Assembly (NCBI GenBank): GCA_947259075.1
Contig: CAMYKQ010000029.1
Location: 1 to 64,000 of the forward strand
Direction: 5' to 3'
DNA from: an uncultured Gammaproteobacteria bacterium
GTDB lineage: Bacteria; Pseudomonadota; Gammaproteobacteria; DRLM01
Length of the DNA: 64,000 bases
Position numbers and translations under genes: made by a program. The notes beneath the pieces were generated by a model. The model did not search any database, was not told the DNA's origin, and saw only the letters and a program-made list of their open reading frames with translations. Below are positions 22,305 to 31,077 of this stretch, piece after piece. Every line of letters starts with the position of its first letter. The stretch's first letter is position 1.

Positions 22305-22329
22305 GTAGACCTTTCTTGTCCATGACACT

Positions 22330-22355
22330 GGGCGCCTTCGGGCGCCCTTTTTTTT
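22330..22355 (+). terminator. Rho-independent terminator of glnK-amtB
   Basis: GGGCGCC-ttcg-GGCGCCC forms a seven-pair GC stem with a tight loop, followed at once by eight T residues. It lies 25 bases after the amtB stop. It isolates the nitrogen operon from the peptide cassette downstream. Confidence 0.9.
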
Positions 22356-22799
22356 GCCTTGTATTTGCCGGGTGCGGCTGCTGTTCGCCGGCAGCCTGAG
22401 TGTTCTCCGCGGGCCTTGCCCGCGCCGCGTGGATTCCGCCGTTAGGCGCGCTGTCCTTGACCCATGTGTTCCCGCGCTTGACTGAAGGTGGCGATGCGCC
22501 AGCGTTGGGCTGCGATAGGCCGGTACGTGACGGCCGCTTCGCGCGTGCATGGCGACGCATCGTGAATTTTTCACACGTGCATTGTGAACTCCTTGACTGA
22601 GTCTGCATCTTCGCGGCGGTAATTTGATGTCGCGGGTTGGAGTTTTGTTCAGGAGACTTTCTTCCTGAGCCTCGCGAGAACGACGTAGCGGTCTAGGTGA
22701 GTATTAGGTGACTCGTTTCCTTTTACGCCAACCGCCGCGTCAACCGGGTTATGCAATGTGCTGTCCGGGATTTAACGACATCAATATGGAGATTACATC
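22356..22799. other. Leader region of the peptide cassette, no gene seen
   Basis: About 440 bases separate the amtB terminator from the precursor gene. The region must hold the cassette promoter, but I could not fit a well-spaced -35/-10 pair. No ORF with a credible start is present. A GGAG at 22788-22791 is the ribosome binding site of the precursor gene. Confidence 0.45.
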
Positions 22800-23003
22800 A
22801 TGAGCTTCTTTAAACGCGACCAAGTCAAAAAGTCCTCGCTGGACGCTTTCAAAACCACGGCCTCGGCCATCGACGATGCCGCTGCCCTGGAAAAGATCAC
22901 CGGCGGTTTATTGTCCGGCTGTCATACCGGCGGCAAGCTGGCCACGGCCAGTAGTCTGTCCCGGGTGAGCATCGCCTCCTTCAGTGTGGCGGCGATGGTT
23001 TAA
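22800..23003 (+). CDS. RiPP/bacteriocin-like precursor peptide with double-glycine leader
   Basis: The 67-residue peptide starts at an ATG with GGAG eight bases upstream. Residues 1-36 form an amphipathic leader ending ALEKITGG, the double-glycine form cut by C39 peptidases. The predicted core (37-67) begins LLSGCHTGGKLATASSLSRV and is rich in Ser and Thr (nine residues), with one Cys (41), one His (42) and a hydrophobic end SFSVAAMV. A second GG at 44-45 is a less likely cut site because the residues before it do not match a leader. An HExxH-like enzyme, a C39 ABC exporter and an HlyD protein follow on the same strand, which supports the role. With a single Cys, lanthionine rings or disulfides within one peptide are unlikely. 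Confidence 0.8.
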   Translation: MSFFKRDQVKKSSLDAFKTTASAIDDAAALEKITGGLLSGCHTGGKLATASSLSRVSIASFSVAAMV

Positions 23004-23010
23004 TCCCCCT

Positions 23011-23056
23011 GAGGCGGCGGGACGGAAAGGATACCGTTTCGCCGTCTCAATTTTTT
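23011..23056 (+). terminator. Hairpin with T-run after the precursor gene (probable attenuator)
   Basis: GAGGCGGCG at 23011-23019 pairs with CGCCGTCTC at 23040-23048, with one G-U pair. An inner stem, ACGG with CCGT, closes the loop, and TTTTTT follows at 23051-23056. Placed seven bases after the precursor stop and before the enzyme gene, it would let most transcripts end after the precursor while some read through. This is a common design in peptide operons. Confidence 0.7.
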
Positions 23057-23079
23057 AGAAAGGCGAGCGGGGGTGCGAT

Positions 23080-24267
23080 ATGTTTAGTCACGAGCTGGTG
23101 CAGTATCTTGCGGAGAATATTCGCGTGGGCCAGGCTGAACTGGCGCGGACAGTGCGTGGTTTGCTGTCGCGGCGCGCGCCTGGCTTAGCCGCGTCCTTGG
23201 CTGCAAATAATGACGCCGCATTTTTGGAGCCCGCCGTATTTGCATGGCTGACGGCGCGGCGCGAGGATATCGATCCGCAACAAATCTTCTATGCCTATTT
23301 GCCGGAATCGGCGCGGCCATCGTGTCTGCTTCTGGCGGCGGATGCGCGAGGTTTCGCCCATATTCCGCGGCTGGGATATTTCGCCGGTTTGGCACCGTTG
23401 CAACAAACCGAGCTTATGCGGCAAGGCGGGTTAATGGATTGGGTGTCCCTGACCGCGGCGGACGTCCACCCGCTGGAATTTATCCCGGCGCGTTTTGCCG
23501 CCGCCGGATTATTAGAATTCACTTACACCATGGACCCCGTATTGTGGCCTTTATTCGCGGAGACCGGGCATGTGCATGCCGCGGCGCTGGCCTTGGATGA
23601 AATCACGGAAATCCAAACCCAATTCAATTCCGCGCTGACGCTGATGCGCCAGGCGCGGCCTGATATTTATCGTTTGTTATGCATGGCGAATAGGCGGGTG
23701 CATGTGTATCGGGCCGAGGCGCCGAATTCCTTCGCCAGCCTCTCCATGCACGGCGCCGCGTTTCTCAATCGCGTCGAGCGCCCGGGCACGGTATTTTTTC
23801 TAGATGACTTCGCCCATCAGGGCGGACATGTCGCCTTCAACGCGGCCACGTTAAATCATGGCCGCTTTTTGAAGGCCGATCCTCAGCGTCCGCTACGCGA
23901 CGTGGTGGCGGACAGCGATGACCGCCGCAGTCTCTATTCCGCCTTCCACGGCTTGTTCACCTACAGTCTTATCGTCAGTGTCTTGCTGGCGAGTGTGCGC
24001 CGCGGTCTCCTCAATAGCGCGCAGGCCCATGAGGCGCGCGCCCGTTTGGGTTTTTATCTGCTCAAGTTTCAGCGTGATTTGCGCAGTCTGGCCCAGCCCA
24101 AGTTCTACACCGCCGAGGGCACGCTGTTATATCGCGGTTTTCACGAATGTTATGAGGCGGCCATCGCCGCCTGCGCCGCCGAGTTGCGCGGATTCGATTA
24201 CTCCAATCAACCATATGTGTTTCATTACGGACGATTCAATCAATTGAATCCCGGTCATGCGGCTTGA
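23080..24267 (+). CDS. HExxH-like putative peptide-modification enzyme with HQGGH motif
   Basis: I recognise no close named homologue for this 395-residue soluble protein. Its C-terminal half resembles the HExxH-motif putative peptide-modification family found in RiPP clusters. FFLDDFAHQGGHVAFNA places HQGGH at 246-250, a TVFF strand precedes it, and SDDRRSLYSAFHGLFTYSLI at 279-298 matches the family's later aromatic-rich segment, where His290 could be a third metal ligand. The usual catalytic Glu is Gln247, so proteolysis is unlikely and a metal-dependent oxygenase-type role is more plausible (inference). No signal peptide or membrane segment is seen. It follows the precursor by 76 bases and precedes the exporter by 27, so it is the only candidate maturation enzyme in the cassette. 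Confidence 0.6.
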   Translation: MFSHELVQYLAENIRVGQAELARTVRGLLSRRAPGLAASLAANNDAAFLEPAVFAWLTARREDIDPQQIFYAYLPESARPSCLLLAADARGFAHIPRLGYFAGLAPLQQTELMRQGGLMDWVSLTAADVHPLEFIPARFAAAGLLEFTYTMDPVLWPLFAETGHVHAAALALDEITEIQTQFNSALTLMRQARPDIYRLLCMANRRVHVYRAEAPNSFASLSMHGAAFLNRVERPGTVFFLDDFAHQGGHVAFNAATLNHGRFLKADPQRPLRDVVADSDDRRSLYSAFHGLFTYSLIVSVLLASVRRGLLNSAQAHEARARLGFYLLKFQRDLRSLAQPKFYTAEGTLLYRGFHECYEAAIAACAAELRGFDYSNQPYVFHYGRFNQLNPGHAA

Positions 24268-24294
24268 GGCCGCAAGCCGCAAAGAGGGTAGATC

Positions 24295-26496
24295 ATGAAG
24301 CGCTTCACGTTCTTCCGGCAAATGGATCAGATGGATTGCGGCCCCACTTGTCTACGCATGGTGGCGCATCATTACGGCCGCGTGGTCGATCAGGAGCAAT
24401 TACGCGAAGAGTGCGGCATCACCCGCGAAGGCGTGTCCTTGGGCGGCATCGCCGCGGCCGCCGAGGCGATAGGGCTAAAATCACTGGCGGTGCGGGTGCC
24501 GGTCACGACGCTGGCTGAGGTGCCATTGCCCTGCGTTGCATACTGGCGGCAGCGTCACTTTATCGTGATACATCGCGTGAAGGGCGATTATATTTACGCC
24601 GCCGATCCGGGTCATGGCCTGATAAAGTACAGCAAGCGCGAATTCATGGAAGGTTGGCTGGGCCAGCGTGATGCCGATGAAACGACGCCGGGTTTACTGT
24701 TGTTGTTGGAACCCACCCCGGAATTTTACGAACGTGACGCGCCCGAGCGCGAACCGCGGCGCGGCATCCGTTTTCTTACGCCCTATTTCCGCCCCTATCG
24801 CCATTTGATCGCTCAGTTGTTATTGGGCCTCTTGGTAGGCAGTTTACTGTTGATGAGCTTTCCGTTTCTGACTCAGGCCATCGTCGATAATGGCATCCAG
24901 TTTCAAAATTTAAATTTCGTATATTTGATCCTGGCGGCGCAGTTGATGTTGTTCCTGTCACAGACCAGTGTCGACATCGTTCGTAATTGGATCTTGTTGC
25001 ATGTGGGTTCGCGTATGCAGATATCCCTGCTCTCGGATTTTCTGCGCAAGCTCATGCGTCTGCCCATGGCCTTCTTCGACGCGAAGATGATAGGCGACCT
25101 GTTGCAGCGGGTGCAGGATCACGACCGCGTTGAATCCTTTCTTTCCGCATCGACGTTGACGATGTTGTTCTCGGTGTTCAGCGTGGTGCTGTTCGGCATC
25201 GTTTTGGCGATTTACAGTACGCAAATCTTCCTTATATTTCTCGCGGGCACGGTGTTGTATCTGCTGTGGGTGCTGGCCTTCATGAAGCGCCGCGCGGAGC
25301 TGGACTACCGCCGCTTCGATCAGGCGTCCGGCAATCAAAGCAGCATGGTGCAGCTCATCAACGGCGTGCAAGAGATCAAGCTCAATAATTCCGAGAAGCG
25401 CCGCCGCTGGGAATGGGAGGCGATACAAGTGCGTTTGTTTCGCGTCTCGGTGAAGGGTCTGGCCTTATTGCAATATCAAACCACCGGTGGCAATTTCATC
25501 AACGAGGTGAAAAACATTCTCATCACCGTGCTCGCCGCCAAGGCGGTGATCGCCGGACAAATGACCCTGGGGCAGATGCTGGCGGTGCAATACATCATCG
25601 GCCAGTTGAACGTGCCGGTGCGCAACTTCGTCTCCTTCATTCAAGCCTGGCAAGACGCCCGCATCAGTCTCGACCGTCTGGCGGAGATCCATCATCGTGA
25701 CGAAGAGGATGCCGGCGAAACGGCCAAGGTGCGGGTGCTGCCGGCGCAGCGCGATATCGTCATCACCAACAATCTCACCTTTAGATACGGCAGTCCGCGC
25801 TCCGAAGCGGTGCTCAAGGACATTAATCTGGTTATCCCGCAAGGCAAGATCACCGCCATCGTCGGCGCCAGCGGCAGCGGCAAGACCACTTTGCTCAAGT
25901 TGCTGCTGAAATTCTATGAGCCGGAGCGCGGGCGCATACAGGTGGGCCCCTTGCCCTTGGGTGATATCGATACTCATCTATGGCGGCAACGTTGCGGCGT
26001 GGTGATGCAAGACGGCTATATCTTCGCCGATACCATCGCGCGCAACATCACCGAGTCGGATTCGGAAGGCGCCATCGATCGCGAGCGTTTGCTGCGCGCG
26101 GTGCACATCGCTAATCTCGAAGAATTAATCGAGCGTCTGCCGCAGGGTTATAACACCCGCATCGGCGCCAGCGGCATCACCCTCAGCGGCGGCCAGCGCC
26201 AGCGCATCCTCATCGCCCGCGCGATTTACAAGGAACCGGATTTTTTATTTTTCGACGAGGCCACCAGCGCGCTCGATGCGCACAACGAACGGGTGATCGT
26301 CGAGAATCTGGAGGCGTTTTATCAGGGCCGCACCGTGGTGGTGATCGCCCATCGCCTCAGCACCGTGAAGAACGCGCATCAAATCGTGGTGCTCGATCGC
26401 GGCGAGGTGGTGGAGCTGGGGGATCATCCCAGTCTCACCACGCGCAAGGGCGCGTATTTCAGTCTGGTGAAAAATCAGTTGGAGCTGGGTCAGTGA
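24295..26496 (+). CDS. Peptidase-containing ABC exporter (C39 domain, PCAT)
   Basis: The 733-residue protein cuts double-glycine leaders and exports the core peptide. The N-terminal C39 domain (about 1-135) has its full active site: Gln12 and Cys15 in QMDQMDCGPTCL, His88 in RQRHFIVIH and Asp104 in AADPGHG. A six-helix transmembrane domain (about 165-440) follows, then a nucleotide-binding domain with Walker A GASGSGKTT, signature LSGGQRQRI, Walker B FLFFDEATSALD and H-loop AHRLS. GAGGG precedes the ATG. The intact protease site next to a peptide with ITGG is strong evidence that precursor and exporter belong together. Confidence 0.93.
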   Translation: MKRFTFFRQMDQMDCGPTCLRMVAHHYGRVVDQEQLREECGITREGVSLGGIAAAAEAIGLKSLAVRVPVTTLAEVPLPCVAYWRQRHFIVIHRVKGDYIYAADPGHGLIKYSKREFMEGWLGQRDADETTPGLLLLLEPTPEFYERDAPEREPRRGIRFLTPYFRPYRHLIAQLLLGLLVGSLLLMSFPFLTQAIVDNGIQFQNLNFVYLILAAQLMLFLSQTSVDIVRNWILLHVGSRMQISLLSDFLRKLMRLPMAFFDAKMIGDLLQRVQDHDRVESFLSASTLTMLFSVFSVVLFGIVLAIYSTQIFLIFLAGTVLYLLWVLAFMKRRAELDYRRFDQASGNQSSMVQLINGVQEIKLNNSEKRRRWEWEAIQVRLFRVSVKGLALLQYQTTGGNFINEVKNILITVLAAKAVIAGQMTLGQMLAVQYIIGQLNVPVRNFVSFIQAWQDARISLDRLAEIHHRDEEDAGETAKVRVLPAQRDIVITNNLTFRYGSPRSEAVLKDINLVIPQGKITAIVGASGSGKTTLLKLLLKFYEPERGRIQVGPLPLGDIDTHLWRQRCGVVMQDGYIFADTIARNITESDSEGAIDRERLLRAVHIANLEELIERLPQGYNTRIGASGITLSGGQRQRILIARAIYKEPDFLFFDEATSALDAHNERVIVENLEAFYQGRTVVVIAHRLSTVKNAHQIVVLDRGEVVELGDHPSLTTRKGAYFSLVKNQLELGQ

Positions 26497-26521
26497 GGGC
26501 CGCCTCCAAGGAGGGTGAGTC

Positions 26522-27895
26522 ATGCCGCGGCTAGAGATCAATAACGAGCTGGGTGAATACAGTCACTATGCCCGTGAGGTCTTGGGCGCGATCTCGCCGT
26601 GGATTTTGCGCTGGGGCACCACGGTGATCTGCGCCGCCATCGCGCTGCTGGTGGGCGTGGCCTGGTGGATTAAATATCCCGAGGTCGTGCCCGCGCGCAT
26701 CGTCGTCACCACCCCCATGCCGCCGGCGCGTTTGGTGGCGCCCAGCGCGGGCAAGTTGCAGCGGGTGACGGTGCGCGACCAGCAGCAGGTGGCGGCGGGG
26801 GATATGCTGGCGGTGATCGAAAATACCGCCGATACCGAGGCCGCGCAGGCGCTCGCCGCTCAGCTCAATGACAGCGCCGCGGCGCGCGCTTGCCGCATCA
26901 ATGCGGCGCGCGCGGCCCAGCCGCTCCCGCGCCTCGGCGTCCTGCAAGAGGCCTACGCCGCCTATCAAGCCCGTTGTGGTGAATATCTGGAATCCTTGCG
27001 CCACGACCGCGCGGCGCAACAGCTGCAAGCGCTGGAGGCGCGGCGGCGCGAGACCCTCGCCCTACTGGAGGTCTTGACGCATCAGGCGCGGACCCTCAAG
27101 GAAAAACGCGCGTTGCTGGAAAAGGATTTGGCGCGTTACGCCAGTTTGCGGCAAGCCGGAACGGTCTCGGAGAAGATGCTCGACGACAAGCGCGCCGAAC
27201 GCCTCGACCTGCGCCGTGCCGAGGAGCAATTGGAATCGGAGCGCGCGGCGGCGCGCATCGATTTGAGCCGCGCCGAGGAGGAGCGTTTGCAATTGCGCGT
27301 GCTTGACGAGCGGCGGGTGGAAGAGATGCGCGCCCAGATCGATGAGGCCTATCAAACCTTGCTGGGCCGCATCGCCGAATGGGAGCGTGCCTATGTGTTG
27401 CGCGCGCCCATTGCCGGTCGCGTGGCCTTGTTTGATTACTGGAGCGACAATCAATACGTCGCCGCCGGTGATGAGGTGATGAGCATCGTCCCCGCGGATG
27501 CCGGTGAAATCCTCGGCAAGATGCGCGTGCCCTTGAGCAATTCGGGCAAGCTGCGGGTGGGGCAGCAGGTTCACATCCGCCTCGAAGGTTTTCCTTATCA
27601 GGAATACGGTCTGGTGCAGGGCCGGATCAGTAATATCTCGCAAGTGCCGCGGCAGCAGACGTATGCGGTGGAGGTGGCCTTGCCCGCGCCCCTGGTCACC
27701 AGTTTCGGCAAGCGCCTGGCCTTCATGCAGGAGATGGAAGGTCAGGCCGACATCGTCACCCAGGAGGCGCGTTTGTTAACGCGCATCTTCCGTGAATTGG
27801 TGGCGCCCTTCAGCCGCTCCTTGCCGGGGGATGATCCTCCGCCCGCGGCTGTTGCGCCCGTGGAGCTTGTGCTTAAGGAATCTCTGATTTATTAG
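26522..27895 (+). CDS. HlyD-family membrane fusion protein of the peptide exporter
   Basis: The 457-residue periplasmic adaptor has one N-terminal membrane helix (about 29-50, ending WWIKYPEVVPARIVVTT), a split lipoyl/biotinyl-like domain, a long coiled-coil hairpin (about 120-275, rich in Arg, Glu and Ala) and a C-terminal beta domain. It links the inner-membrane ABC exporter to an outer-membrane channel of the TolC type. No TolC gene is present here, so a channel encoded elsewhere must serve. AAGGAGG lies just before the ATG, and the 25-base gap from the exporter gene shows co-transcription. Confidence 0.88.
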   Translation: MPRLEINNELGEYSHYAREVLGAISPWILRWGTTVICAAIALLVGVAWWIKYPEVVPARIVVTTPMPPARLVAPSAGKLQRVTVRDQQQVAAGDMLAVIENTADTEAAQALAAQLNDSAAARACRINAARAAQPLPRLGVLQEAYAAYQARCGEYLESLRHDRAAQQLQALEARRRETLALLEVLTHQARTLKEKRALLEKDLARYASLRQAGTVSEKMLDDKRAERLDLRRAEEQLESERAAARIDLSRAEEERLQLRVLDERRVEEMRAQIDEAYQTLLGRIAEWERAYVLRAPIAGRVALFDYWSDNQYVAAGDEVMSIVPADAGEILGKMRVPLSNSGKLRVGQQVHIRLEGFPYQEYGLVQGRISNISQVPRQQTYAVEVALPAPLVTSFGKRLAFMQEMEGQADIVTQEARLLTRIFRELVAPFSRSLPGDDPPPAAVAPVELVLKESLIY

Positions 27896-27904
27896 AGATT
27901 CCGT

Positions 27905-27987
27905 GCGGCGCAAGGACGCGCCGCCATTTTCCATGGCTGAAAGTCATGGAAAATGAAGGAAAGTGAAAATCACATTTTTCGCTTTCC
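27905..27987 (+). terminator. Cluster of hairpins after the peptide cassette
   Basis: Three stems follow the HlyD stop: GCGGCG with CGCCGC near 27905-27924, TTTTCCATG with CATGGAAAA at 27927-27953, and GGAAAGTGAAAA with TTTTCGCTTTCC at 27958-27987 (one G-U pair). The first is followed by CATTTT. Together they probably end the cassette transcript and separate it from the next genes. Confidence 0.6.
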
Positions 27988-28062
27988 TTGCGCTGAAAAT
28001 GCCAGGATGGCATTATTCAGAGCTTCCTTAAATAACACCCGTGCCGCAGCAGCGAGGGTGTC

Positions 28063-28587
28063 ATGGCCCCGGTGAAACTCTTCATCGCCACCAGTGCCGA
28101 TGGTTATATTGCCCGCAAGGATGGCGGTATCGATTGGCTGTTCTCCGATCAAGATTACGGCTACACGCCTTTCTTCGCCTCAGTGGACGCGTTAATCATG
28201 GGCAGTAAAACCTATGAGCAGTCCTTGAGTTTCGGGGCGTGGCCCTATCCCGGGGTCAGCAGTTATGTGTTCACCCGCCGCGGCTTGCGGCCGCCGCCGG
28301 GACAGCCGGTGCAATTCGTCTCCGGCGCCGCGGGGCTGATTTTAGATCAAGTGCGCGCCGTGGCGAAAAAGGCCATTTGGCTGGTGGGTGGCGGCGCCGT
28401 GGTGTCGCAGTTCCGTCAAGCGGGTTTGATCGATGAATATGAGATTTTCGTCCACCCCGTCTTGCTCGGTGACGGCATCCCGCTGTTCGCCGCGGGCTTG
28501 CCTCAGGAAGATTTGAGATTAGCGCAGACGCGGTCTTACGCCAGCGGTTTGGTGCAGTTGCACTATGTGAAGGCGCGCGATGAGTGA
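28063..28587 (+). CDS. Dihydrofolate reductase-like protein (RibD C-terminal family)
   Basis: The 174-residue protein has the RibD/DHFR-like fold: VKLFIATSADGYIARKDGGIDWL at the N-terminus, ALIMGSKTYEQSL as the pyridine-nucleotide segment, and AIWLVGGGAVVSQF as the second dinucleotide-binding motif. Members reduce small heterocyclic substrates with NADPH, but most are uncharacterised, and I cannot name this one's substrate. The stop overlaps the start of the following acetyltransferase gene, so the pair is co-expressed. It lies behind the hairpin cluster that ends the peptide cassette, so a role in that cassette is possible but not supported. Confidence 0.8.
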   Translation: MAPVKLFIATSADGYIARKDGGIDWLFSDQDYGYTPFFASVDALIMGSKTYEQSLSFGAWPYPGVSSYVFTRRGLRPPPGQPVQFVSGAAGLILDQVRAVAKKAIWLVGGGAVVSQFRQAGLIDEYEIFVHPVLLGDGIPLFAAGLPQEDLRLAQTRSYASGLVQLHYVKARDE

Positions 28588-29185
28588 GCGCGCGCCGCCC
28601 GGGGATGCAAGCGGCGTGCTGCAATTGCGCCCCGCGCGCAAAAGCGAGTGCCGCACCATCGCGCGTTTATACGCCATCTCCTCCGACGGGGTGTCCGAGT
28701 ACGTTTGGACTCGCGAGGCTCAAGCCGGTGAAGATATTTTAGACGTGGGCCAGCGCCGTTATGAACGTGAGGACTCGGTGTTCAGTTATAAAAACTGTAC
28801 CCTCGCCGTCCTCGGTGACGCCATCGCCGGCATGATGGTGGCCTTTCCCGTCAACGCCGGGGACGCGCCATCGGCGCCGGACCCCGATCCCGTGCTCGCC
28901 CCGTACGCGCAACTTGAAGTCCGCCCCAGCTTCTATGTGTGCGGGGTGGCGCTGTTTCCCGAATACCGCGGCCGCGGCATAGGCGGACGGATGATGGCCT
29001 GCGCCGAAGAGCGGGCGCGCGCGCTGAAATTTCGGCAACTCAGTCTCGTGGTGTTTGAGCGGAACACGGCCGCGGCGCGGCTCTATGCGCGTTTGGGTTA
29101 CCGTGAGCGCGCACGCGCGGCCATCGTGCCCCATCCCTTGATTCGTTGCCGCGGCGACGCCGTGCTGCTGGTGAAGGCGATTTAA
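28580..29185 (+). CDS. GNAT-family N-acetyltransferase
   Basis: The 201-residue protein has the GNAT acetyl-CoA-binding motif A in VALFPEYRGRGIGGRMMACAEE (R/Q-x-x-G-x-G/A) and motif B in LVVFERNTAAARLYARLGYRER. The acceptor substrate cannot be told from sequence; proteins, amino acids and antibiotics are all possible. It overlaps the upstream reductase-like gene by eight bases. If the peptide cassette needs self-protection, an acetyltransferase would be a conceivable mechanism, but nothing here shows it. Confidence 0.82.
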   Translation: MSERAPPGDASGVLQLRPARKSECRTIARLYAISSDGVSEYVWTREAQAGEDILDVGQRRYEREDSVFSYKNCTLAVLGDAIAGMMVAFPVNAGDAPSAPDPDPVLAPYAQLEVRPSFYVCGVALFPEYRGRGIGGRMMACAEERARALKFRQLSLVVFERNTAAARLYARLGYRERARAAIVPHPLIRCRGDAVLLVKAI

Positions 29186-29270
29186 ACCGGCGTTGAGCGT
29201 TGTGCCGCGAGCTTCGGCTCAGAACGCCGGTTTCACCGCCGGGCGTTGCGCGAAAAAATAAAAACGCCGC

Positions 29271-29507: not shown

Positions 29508-29606
29508 GAGGGACTCCTTGTTCACCGTGGGTGTTGAATGACGCGCGAGCGCCTTGCTGGCGATTACAGGCTTGCCGCCGCGCGGTGTCAAGCGCGCATG
29601 TCAATC

Positions 29607-30296
29607 ATGTCAGAACCAGATTGGCGCGTGCTACAGTCAGCGCGGCGCTATTTTTATAATCGAGAGGGTTCACCACTGAAACGTTTGGAGGCGCGGGCGC
29701 TGCGGGTGCGGCACGTTGGTCCGCTGGATTTTGCCGTGGCGGACGGTGAATGCGTGGCGCTGGCGGGGCCGTCGGGCGCGGGCAAGAGTTTATTGTTGCG
29801 CGCGCTGGCGGATATGGAGCCGCACGAGGGCGAGGTGTTGCTCGACGGCGTGAGCTGTAGCGCCATCGACCCGCCCGCGTGGCGCCGGCAAGTGGGCTTG
29901 CTCAGCGCCGAGAGCGCGTGGTGGCACGACCGTGCCGGCGCGCATTTCGCGCGGGTGGACGCGGCGCTGCTGCGCGAACTGGGTTTTGAACCCAAGGTGA
30001 TGGACGCCGAGGTCCACCAGCTCTCCACCGGCGAACGCCAGCGGCTGGCCTTGCTGCGTTTGCTGGTGCAGGCGCCGCGGGTGTTGTTGCTCGACGAACC
30101 CACCGCGAGTCTCGATCCGAAAAATACCGCCCGCATCGAAACCCTGCTGGCGCGTTATCGCGAAGAGCACGGGGTGAGCGTGTTGTGGGTCAGTCACGAC
30201 CCCGAACAATCGCAGCGCGTCGCGCGCCGTCACTGGCGTTTGGATGCGGACGGCTTGCACGAAGCAGGAGCGCGCGATGACGCTGGTCACGCTTGA
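29607..30296 (+). CDS. fetA: ABC transporter ATP-binding protein, FetA/YbbL-like
   Basis: The nucleotide-binding domain has Walker A AGPSGAGKSLLLR, signature STGERQRLALLR and Walker B RVLLLDEPTASLD, followed by the H-loop VSHDPEQ. It pairs with the permease encoded next, whose start lies inside this gene. FetAB-type systems export iron and protect against oxidative stress. The start is uncertain: the frame is open from ATG 29538, in-frame ATGs occur at 29598 and 29607, and homology by eye begins near TTG 29685. No convincing ribosome binding site decides between them. Confidence 0.75.
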   Translation: MSEPDWRVLQSARRYFYNREGSPLKRLEARALRVRHVGPLDFAVADGECVALAGPSGAGKSLLLRALADMEPHEGEVLLDGVSCSAIDPPAWRRQVGLLSAESAWWHDRAGAHFARVDAALLRELGFEPKVMDAEVHQLSTGERQRLALLRLLVQAPRVLLLDEPTASLDPKNTARIETLLARYREEHGVSVLWVSHDPEQSQRVARRHWRLDADGLHEAGARDDAGHA

Positions 30297-31077
30297 TACC
30301 TGGGATTTAATCATGGCCGCCGTCTTGGTGCTGGCCTTGGCGGGTTTGAGCTTCCGTTTGCAATTGGGCGTGAGCCAGCAATTGCTGGTGGCGGCGCTGC
30401 GCACCACGGTGCAATTATTGTTGATCGGCTTGGTGCTGAAGGCGCTGTTCGCCAATGTGCATCTCGGCTGGGTGATGGCCATGGCGGCGGTGATGCTGCT
30501 GGTGGCGGGACGCGAGGTGATGGCGCGGCAGCAGCGGCGCTTCGCCGGATTGTGGGGTTACGGCCTGGGCACGCTGTCGATGTTCGTCTCTTCCTTTTCG
30601 GTGACGGTGCTGGCGCTGTTGACGATGGTGGGCGCCGAGCCGTGGTACGCGCCGCAATACGCCATTCCCATGCTGGGCATGTTGCTGGGCAACACCATGA
30701 ACGGCATTGCCTTGAGCATGGACCGGCTCACCCACGGCGCCTGGCAGCAGCGCCGCGCCATCGAGGGGCAATTGCTCTTGGGTTTGAATTGGAGCGAGGC
30801 CATCGCCGCCACGCGTTTGGAGGCGATGCGCGCGGGCATGATCCCCATCATCAATTCCATGGCCGCGGCCGGCGTGGTGAGTCTGCCGGGGATGATGACC
30901 GGCCAGATCCTCGCCGGGGCGCCGCCGGTGGAGGCGGTGAAATATCAAATCCTCATCATGTTTCTCATCGCCGCGGGCACGGGCTTCGGCACGGTGATGG
31001 CGGTGTGGATCGGCGCGCGGCGGCTGTTCGACGAGCGCCAGCGTTTGCGGCTGGACCGGTTGCGGGCGGGAAGTTAG
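30277..31077 (+). CDS. fetB: ABC transporter permease, FetB/YbbM-like
   Basis: The 266-residue protein has about seven membrane helices and the UPF0014/FetB signatures AALRTTVQLLLIGLVL, YAIPMLGMLLGNTMNGIAL and NSMAAAGVVSLPGMMTGQIL. With the ATP-binding protein it forms an exporter associated with iron homeostasis in Escherichia coli. AGGAG lies before the ATG at 30277, which overlaps the end of the ATPase gene by 20 bases, so translation is coupled. The neighbouring CDGSH protein strengthens the iron theme. Confidence 0.85.
   Translation: MTLVTLDTWDLIMAAVLVLALAGLSFRLQLGVSQQLLVAALRTTVQLLLIGLVLKALFANVHLGWVMAMAAVMLLVAGREVMARQQRRFAGLWGYGLGTLSMFVSSFSVTVLALLTMVGAEPWYAPQYAIPMLGMLLGNTMNGIALSMDRLTHGAWQQRRAIEGQLLLGLNWSEAIAATRLEAMRAGMIPIINSMAAAGVVSLPGMMTGQILAGAPPVEAVKYQILIMFLIAAGTGFGTVMAVWIGARRLFDERQRLRLDRLRAGS

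What the first reader, a model, noticed from the sequence alone, without database searches (positions are those of the whole stretch)
22800..27895. Compact RiPP-like cassette: precursor, HQGGH enzyme, C39 exporter and HlyD adaptor
Seen directly: a 67-residue peptide with a LEKITGG leader, a 395-residue enzyme with HQGGH, an ABC exporter with an intact C39 site (Gln12, Cys15, His88, Asp104) and an HlyD protein, all on one strand with short gaps. The cassette is isolated by a strong terminator upstream and hairpins downstream. Known: C39 exporters cut double-glycine leaders, and HExxH-motif proteins occur as RiPP tailoring enzymes. Inference: the enzyme modifies the Ser/Thr-rich core before export. 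No lanthionine synthetase, radical SAM, YcaO or MNIO gene is present, so the chemistry would depend on this one protein.
Basis: partly seen in the sequence, partly recalled or inferred. Interest (0 to 1): 0.85.

Follow-up and report, generated by a model that had tools for sequence, protein, structure and literature searches.

The report
One-enzyme peptide-modification and export cassette
Four neighbouring genes make, probably chemically alter, trim and export a small bacterial peptide, and the altering enzyme belongs to a rare, so far undescribed offshoot of iron-dependent peptide hydroxylases that always sits next to a small peptide gene carrying a Cys-His pair.

Summary
In detail: a 67-aa precursor with a double-glycine leader, a 395-aa HQGGH enzyme, a C39 ABC exporter with intact catalytic residues and a HlyD adaptor (22800-27895, + strand). 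The same four genes in the same order occur in two other Proteobacteria MAGs and evolve under purifying selection. The enzyme is a distant relative of the aKG-HExxH peptide beta-hydroxylases (TIGR04267, below cut-off; profile comparison 96%, E 1.7e-9, shuffled controls at most 0.4%). It forms a separate HQxGH clade: in all six homologues found, the Glu of HExxH is Gln, while both His, a downstream acidic residue and a third His are kept. All six have a small peptide gene directly upstream. Branches that are only 16-29% identical share a Cys-His dipeptide preceded by Gly/Ala. The likely target is therefore the Cys-His site just after the GG cut, rather than Ser/Thr residues. Three homologues show no exporter, so the constant unit is enzyme plus precursor. 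The 'downstream hairpins' are a 159-bp repeat with 31 copies in this genome. The cassette is absent from the same site in a congener. Chemistry, cofactor and fold are unproven (AlphaFold models poor, no Foldseek hit). Verdict: new variant of a known kind, moderately interesting.

The parts
22330..22347 (+). intrinsic terminator of the upstream amtB gene
   Evidence: 7-bp GC stem plus T8
22800..23003 (+). precursor peptide, 67 aa; leader residues 1-36 ending LEKITGG, core residues 37-67
   Evidence: conserved in L009 and L010
22902..22907 (+). codons Gly35-Gly36; C39 cleavage expected after 22907
   Evidence: sequence; GG invariant in the three exporter-linked precursors
22917..22925 (+). codons Gly40-Cys41-His42, proposed modification site
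   Evidence: Cys-His in 6 of 6 precursors, preceded by Gly or Ala in all (and sequences)
23010..23049 (+). hairpin between precursor and enzyme genes followed by ATTTTTTA; likely partial terminator or RNA stabiliser
   Evidence: 16-pair stem, z -3.8; strong hairpins at the same place in L009 (z -2.4) and L010 (z -4.0) with dissimilar sequence
23080..24267 (+). HQxGH enzyme, 395 aa, proposed Fe-dependent oxidative peptide-modifying enzyme
   Evidence: TIGR04267 E 5.4e-5, 23.2 bits below cut-off 40; hhalign 96.3%, E 1.7e-9, controls
23815..23829 (+). HQGGH motif (His246, His250 proposed metal ligands)
   Evidence: HQxGH invariant in 6 of 6
23920..23949 (+). Asp281 ... His290, aligned with the DPRPxxGIYH motif of aKG-HExxH proteins
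   Evidence: D/E281 and His290 in 6 of 6; alignment
24295..26496 (+). C39 peptidase-containing ABC exporter, 733 aa
   Evidence: 93% and 75% identical in L009 and L010
26522..27895 (+). HlyD-family adaptor, 457 aa
   Evidence: HlyD_3 E 3.9e-18, TIGR01843 E 6.5e-40 below cut-off
27873..28031 (.). 159-bp dispersed element with 15-bp terminal inverted repeats, overlapping the last codons of hlyD; not part of the cassette's function
   Evidence: 31, 43 and 21 copies in three genomes of the genus; TIR 14/15

Best explanation
A self-contained RiPP cassette. The precursor is made with a SLDxF...LEKITGG leader. The HQxGH enzyme, a distant relative of the Fe/alpha-ketoglutarate HExxH peptide hydroxylases, binds the leader and oxidises the peptide at the conserved [Gly/Ala]-Cys-His site a few residues after the double glycine, most simply by hydroxylating His42 (beta-carbon) or a neighbouring residue. 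The C39 domain of the ABC exporter then cuts after Gly36 and, with HlyD and a TolC-type outer-membrane channel encoded elsewhere, secretes a peptide of about 31 residues. Shown: gene anatomy, conservation, enzyme ancestry, constant pairing with Cys-His peptides, intact C39 site. Inferred: metal, cofactor, reaction, site, secretion and biological role.
For: Same four genes in the same order in three unlinked genomic settings. Purifying selection on all four genes. Enzyme matches TIGR04267 weakly and its six-member profile matches a canonical aKG-HExxH profile at 96.3%, E 1.7e-9, against at most 0.4% in 40 column shuffles and 0.1% reversed. The canonical profile in turn matches ChlH, PDB 8s5f, E 6e-16. 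HQxGH, D/E281, His290 are kept in 6 of 6. Each enzyme has a small peptide gene directly upstream, 6 of 6 with Cys-His. Published relatives hydroxylate Asp and His (PMC12636437 citing Morishita 2024), Gln, Phe and Pro (PMC12636437, PMC13060819). C39 site intact.
Against: The enzyme scores below the curated family cut-off and lacks the Glu of HExxH in every homologue. AlphaFold models are poor (pLDDT 50 and 61) and no fold match was found, so the zincin-like fold is untested. Half the homologues show no C39 exporter. No experiment shows any mass change. Cys-His could be needed for recognition or metal binding instead of being modified.
Confidence: 0.58

Rival explanations
1. The enzyme performs oxidative backbone chemistry like PflC/PosC: alpha-hydroxylation of the invariant small residue Gly/Ala40 before Cys-His, leading to N-C(alpha) cleavage and an amide. 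In the exporterless homologues this could itself release the Cys-His peptide.
For: PflC/PosC cut the backbone at a small residue (Ala, partly Gly) (PMC12636437). A small residue precedes Cys-His in all six precursors, and two exporterless loci lack a visible C39 peptidase.
Against: In the exporter-linked cassettes C39 already cuts four residues upstream, so a second cut would only trim off a few residues. The ARMD motif of PflA is absent.
Confidence: 0.12
2. The enzyme uses the same site but another cofactor, for example a pterin or only Fe/O2, or makes a Cys-His crosslink or Cys oxidation instead of a hydroxylation.
For: PolE is a HExxH-type iron enzyme that uses tetrahydropterin (PMC12614342). 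The invariant Cys next to His suggests sulfur chemistry.
Against: Profile similarity is to the alpha-ketoglutarate family; no direct test of cofactor was possible.
Confidence: 0.15
3. The HQxGH protein is a catalytically dead or non-enzymatic member (leader chaperone, immunity or metal-storage protein) and the exported peptide is unmodified, as in class II microcins.
For: The catalytic Glu of zincin peptidases is missing in all homologues. The remaining genes alone would make a microcin V-type export system.
Against: Both His, D/E281, His290, Arg322, Lys329 and Asp333 are retained among sequences about 20% identical, which is unexpected for a dead protein. Invariant Cys-His pairing with the enzyme.
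Confidence: 0.15

Closest known systems
aKG-HExxH peptide beta-hydroxylases (TIGR04267 / IPR026337; ChlH, BpmH/BipH, PflC/PosC, PesO)
   Same: Homologous C-terminal domain by profile comparison; two His four residues apart, downstream D/E and His in register with DxRPxxGxYH; small precursor gene adjacent as in PflC-type clusters.
   Different: Gln replaces Glu in the motif; score below the curated cut-off; the Pro of DxRP is not kept; no radical SAM or MNIO partner; C39 exporter in three loci. Six loci of canonical gammaproteobacterial members (6-16 kb each) hold no C39 exporter.
Peptidase-containing ABC transporters (PCAT) exporting RiPPs in Bacteroidota
   Same: Closest exporters outside the clade are 53-56% identical and some sit beside radical SAM, LanC-like or lantibiotic dehydratase genes.
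   Different: None of the eight Bacteroidota loci examined carries the HQxGH enzyme or this precursor.
Class II microcin export (colicin V: CvaB plus CvaA)
   Same: Double-glycine precursor, C39 ABC exporter, HlyD adaptor.
   Different: An added enzyme gene; no immunity gene recognised.
pfl/pos clusters of Pseudomonas (PMC12636437)
   Same: Precursor plus HExxH-family enzyme as tailoring core.
   Different: NHLP leader without GG site, MNIO-nitroreductase partner and GNAT in pfl/pos; none of these inside this cassette.

Membership tests
aKG-HExxH peptide beta-hydroxylase (TIGR04267) | score above the curated cut-off (40 bits) | tested here: not met
   23.2 bits for the window enzyme, 16.0 for L009, no hit for L034 and L032 of the other branch
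aKG-HExxH peptide beta-hydroxylase (TIGR04267) | HExxH motif | tested here: not met
   HQxGH in 6 of 6
aKG-HExxH peptide beta-hydroxylase (TIGR04267) | common ancestry with canonical members | tested here: met
   hhalign 96.3%, E 1.7e-9 over 183 columns; controls at most 0.4%
aKG-HExxH peptide beta-hydroxylase (TIGR04267) | downstream acidic residue and His aligned with DxRPxxGxYH | tested here: met
   D/E281 and His290 in 6 of 6, in register
aKG-HExxH peptide beta-hydroxylase (TIGR04267) | zincin-like fold of ChlH | tested here: inconclusive
   models pLDDT 50 and 61, no Foldseek match
aKG-HExxH peptide beta-hydroxylase (TIGR04267) | Fe(II)/alpha-ketoglutarate-dependent hydroxylation of a peptide | not testable with these tools
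   needs enzyme assay
PCAT / C39 ABC exporter | C39 peptidase domain with Gln, Cys, His, Asp plus ABC core | tested here: met
   Pfam C39 111 bits, ABC_membrane, ABC_tran; Q12 C15 H88 D104
PCAT / C39 ABC exporter | adjacent double-glycine substrate | tested here: met
   GG at 35-36 in all three exporter-linked precursors
RiPP system | precursor plus dedicated modifying enzyme conserved together | tested here: met
   6 of 6 loci
RiPP system | demonstrated post-translational modification | not testable with these tools
   needs mass spectrometry
class II microcin | TolC partner and immunity gene | not tested
   TolC not searched; no immunity candidate inside the cassette

The most novel reading that the evidence does not exclude
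HQxGH proteins are a separate enzyme class: a zincin-derived iron oxygenase that has lost the hydrolytic Glu and acts on a Gly/Ala-Cys-His site to make a new Cys-His-based modification (oxidised or crosslinked Cys-His, or cleavage beside it). It would be shared by exported double-glycine peptides and by exporterless peptides found next to prophage genes.
Probability: 0.25. Interest if true: 0.75.

Novelty: new variant of a known kind. Interest (0 to 1): 0.56.

Why it matters
The aKG-HExxH proteins were recognised as oxygenases only recently (cited work from 2024) and PflC still shows residual peptidase activity. A natural clade that has replaced the presumed hydrolytic Glu with Gln, yet keeps the other metal-site residues, separates the protease and oxygenase roles of this scaffold and can be tested with one enzyme and one peptide. 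The four-gene cassette is small enough to express whole in a laboratory host, and the constant Cys-His pair predicts the modified site in advance.

Tried and rejected
Structure route: two AlphaFold jobs (full length and residues 159-395, three-sequence alignments) gave pLDDT 50 and 61 and no Foldseek PDB match. Direct sequence search of PDB with the enzyme or its five-member profile: nothing. Pfam, PHROGs, PADLOC: no family for enzyme or precursor. Plasmids: one distant enzyme hit only, no precursor hit. Other copies of the precursor in the four genomes: none credible. The second C39-ABC just past the window end (contig 64.9 kb) is a separate system next to a 2079-aa repeat protein and unrelated. 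Considered and rejected: a plain zinc protease (catalytic Glu missing in all homologues); lanthipeptide, radical SAM, YcaO or MNIO chemistry (no such gene in the cassette); RibD-like and GNAT genes at 28063-29185 as cassette members (they follow the dispersed repeat, and I saw no counterpart downstream of hlyD in L009 or L010).
Full report
WHAT IS THERE. The exporter has Pfam C39, ABC_membrane and ABC_tran domains over cut-off and the residues Gln12, Cys15, His88 and Asp104. HlyD_3 is over cut-off in the fourth protein. Precursor and enzyme match no Pfam family.

CONSERVATION OF THE CASSETTE. A scan of one genome per species from GTDB r220 with the enzyme alignment found two relatives: L009 (MAG ND3_Bin_17, 64%) and L010 (MAG WH4.bin33, 48%). 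Both carry precursor, enzyme, C39 exporter and HlyD in the same order in different neighbourhoods. In L010 an IS66-type element sits inside the 5' part of the enzyme gene, so that copy is probably broken. Between window and L009 synonymous sites are near saturation while proteins are 69% (precursor), 65% (enzyme), 93% (exporter) and 80% (HlyD) identical; dN/dS is well below 1 wherever dS is not saturated. In 258 genomes of the class, no other exporter passes 1e-150.

THE ENZYME. Its only family match is TIGR04267, the aKG-HExxH-type peptide beta-hydroxylase domain (E 5.4e-5, 23.2 bits, cut-off 40). Further homologues came from a genome of another class in the phylum (G449/L034, E 1.6e-39), from a Pseudorhodobacter turbinis plasmid (L032) and from a viral-collection contig (L062). 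In all six the motif is HQxGH, not HExxH, and D/E281, His290, Arg322, Lys329 and Asp333 are also kept. Profile-profile comparison with seven canonical TIGR04267 proteins taken from the genome search gives 96.3% and E 1.7e-9 over 183 columns. HQGGH aligns with HExxH, and D281xR...H290 with DPRPxxGIYH. Forty column shuffles of the query reached at most 0.4% and the reversed profile 0.1%. The canonical profile matches the solved protein ChlH (8s5f) at 6e-16. So the clade is homologous to aKG-HExxH proteins but lies outside the family as curated. From general knowledge, the Glu of HExxH is the general base of zincin peptidases; its constant replacement argues against a protease. Which residue is the third metal ligand is not established here.

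THE PRECURSOR. The three exporter-linked precursors share SxxxFK...AIDDxAALEKI[TS]GG and the core start [LV]L[SA]GCHTG. The three other loci also have a small peptide gene (79-88 aa) directly upstream of the enzyme. These peptides are related to each other (E 3e-25 and 6e-9) and have the element [GA]CHV followed by TG[IV]WIxEL. Across all six, only Met1, Cys41, His42 and Phe61 are invariant. A Gly or Ala precedes Cys-His in every one. The simplest reading is that the Cys-His site is what the enzyme recognises or modifies. Enzyme and precursor are the constant pair. The exporter is a lineage-specific addition: absent near L032 (phmmer), no ORF of that size in the 8.4 kb of L062, and not visible in L034 because its contig ends just after the enzyme.

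REGULATION AND CONTEXT. A 16-pair hairpin followed by a T-run lies between precursor and enzyme (23010-23049). Strong hairpins stand at the same place in L009 and L010 with dissimilar sequence (z -3.8, -2.4, -4.0). A partial terminator that yields more precursor than enzyme is the usual reading, here an inference. The downstream hairpins belong to a 159-bp element with 15-bp inverted ends, present 31 times in this genome and 43 and 21 times in two congeners. It overlaps the last codons of hlyD. In congener G001 the amtB gene is followed after about 0.1 kb by the CDGSH gene, with none of the 7 kb (window 22305-29267) that holds the cassette, so the cassette was gained in this lineage or lost in the other. 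The nearest exporters outside the clade (53-56% identity) are on Bacteroidota plasmids, several beside radical SAM, LanC-like or lantibiotic dehydratase genes, consistent with an exporter of RiPP type. None of the eight loci examined has the HQxGH enzyme.

MECHANISM. Best-supported order: the enzyme acts on the leader-bearing precursor at Gly-Cys-His; C39 cuts after Gly36; ABC, HlyD and an outer-membrane channel export the product. Published relatives beta-hydroxylate Asp, His, Phe, Gln and Pro, and PflC/PosC also cleave the backbone oxidatively at a small residue (PMC12636437, PMC13060819). Beta-hydroxylation near Cys-His is therefore the leading guess; oxidative cleavage at the preceding Gly/Ala, another cofactor as in PolE (PMC12614342), and a non-catalytic protein are the rivals.

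LIMITS. TolC was not searched. That the Cys-His pair is modified rather than merely recognised is inference. The literature library holds only open-licence papers; the paper that first described this family (Morishita et al., Nat. Chem. 2024, doi 10.1038/s41557-024-01596-9) was seen only as a citation.

Noticed in passing
window 27873-28031: 159-bp dispersed element with 15-bp imperfect terminal inverted repeats (TTAAGGAATCTCTGA / TTAAGGAAGCTCTGA), 31 copies in this genome and 43 and 21 in two genomes of the genus; MITE-like.
   Followed up: partly
L010 2505-4990: IS66-type element (three ORFs) inserted in the 5' part of the HQxGH enzyme gene of MAG WH4.bin33 while precursor, exporter and adaptor stay intact.
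   Followed up: partly
L032 4402-8642: Peptide plus HQxGH enzyme pair directly downstream of phage portal, head protease and head decoration genes on a Pseudorhodobacter turbinis plasmid.
   Followed up: partly
L062 1955-8434: Peptide plus HQxGH enzyme pair next to the putative repressor and transposase genes of a Mu-like prophage.
   Followed up: partly
L055 5995-12514 and L056 6001-13295: Two Emticicia plasmids carry a C39 exporter, HlyD and TolC operon followed directly by the defence pair kwaA-kwaB.
   Followed up: no
window 29538-31077: An ABC ATPase and UPF0014 permease pair (FetAB-like) appears absent from the same place in congener G001.
   Followed up: no
contig C29 64792-77954 (L022), just past the window end: Second C39-like ABC exporter and HlyD near a 2079-aa repeat protein, probably a type I secreted adhesin.
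   Followed up: no
L013, L014, L015, L017, L021: Several canonical aKG-HExxH genes in Gammaproteobacteria have a neighbouring gene for a protein with a shared N-terminal motif (ITTxSH...SYDxL...LPPxTWIFTDLDRL); no C39 exporter near those examined.
   Followed up: no
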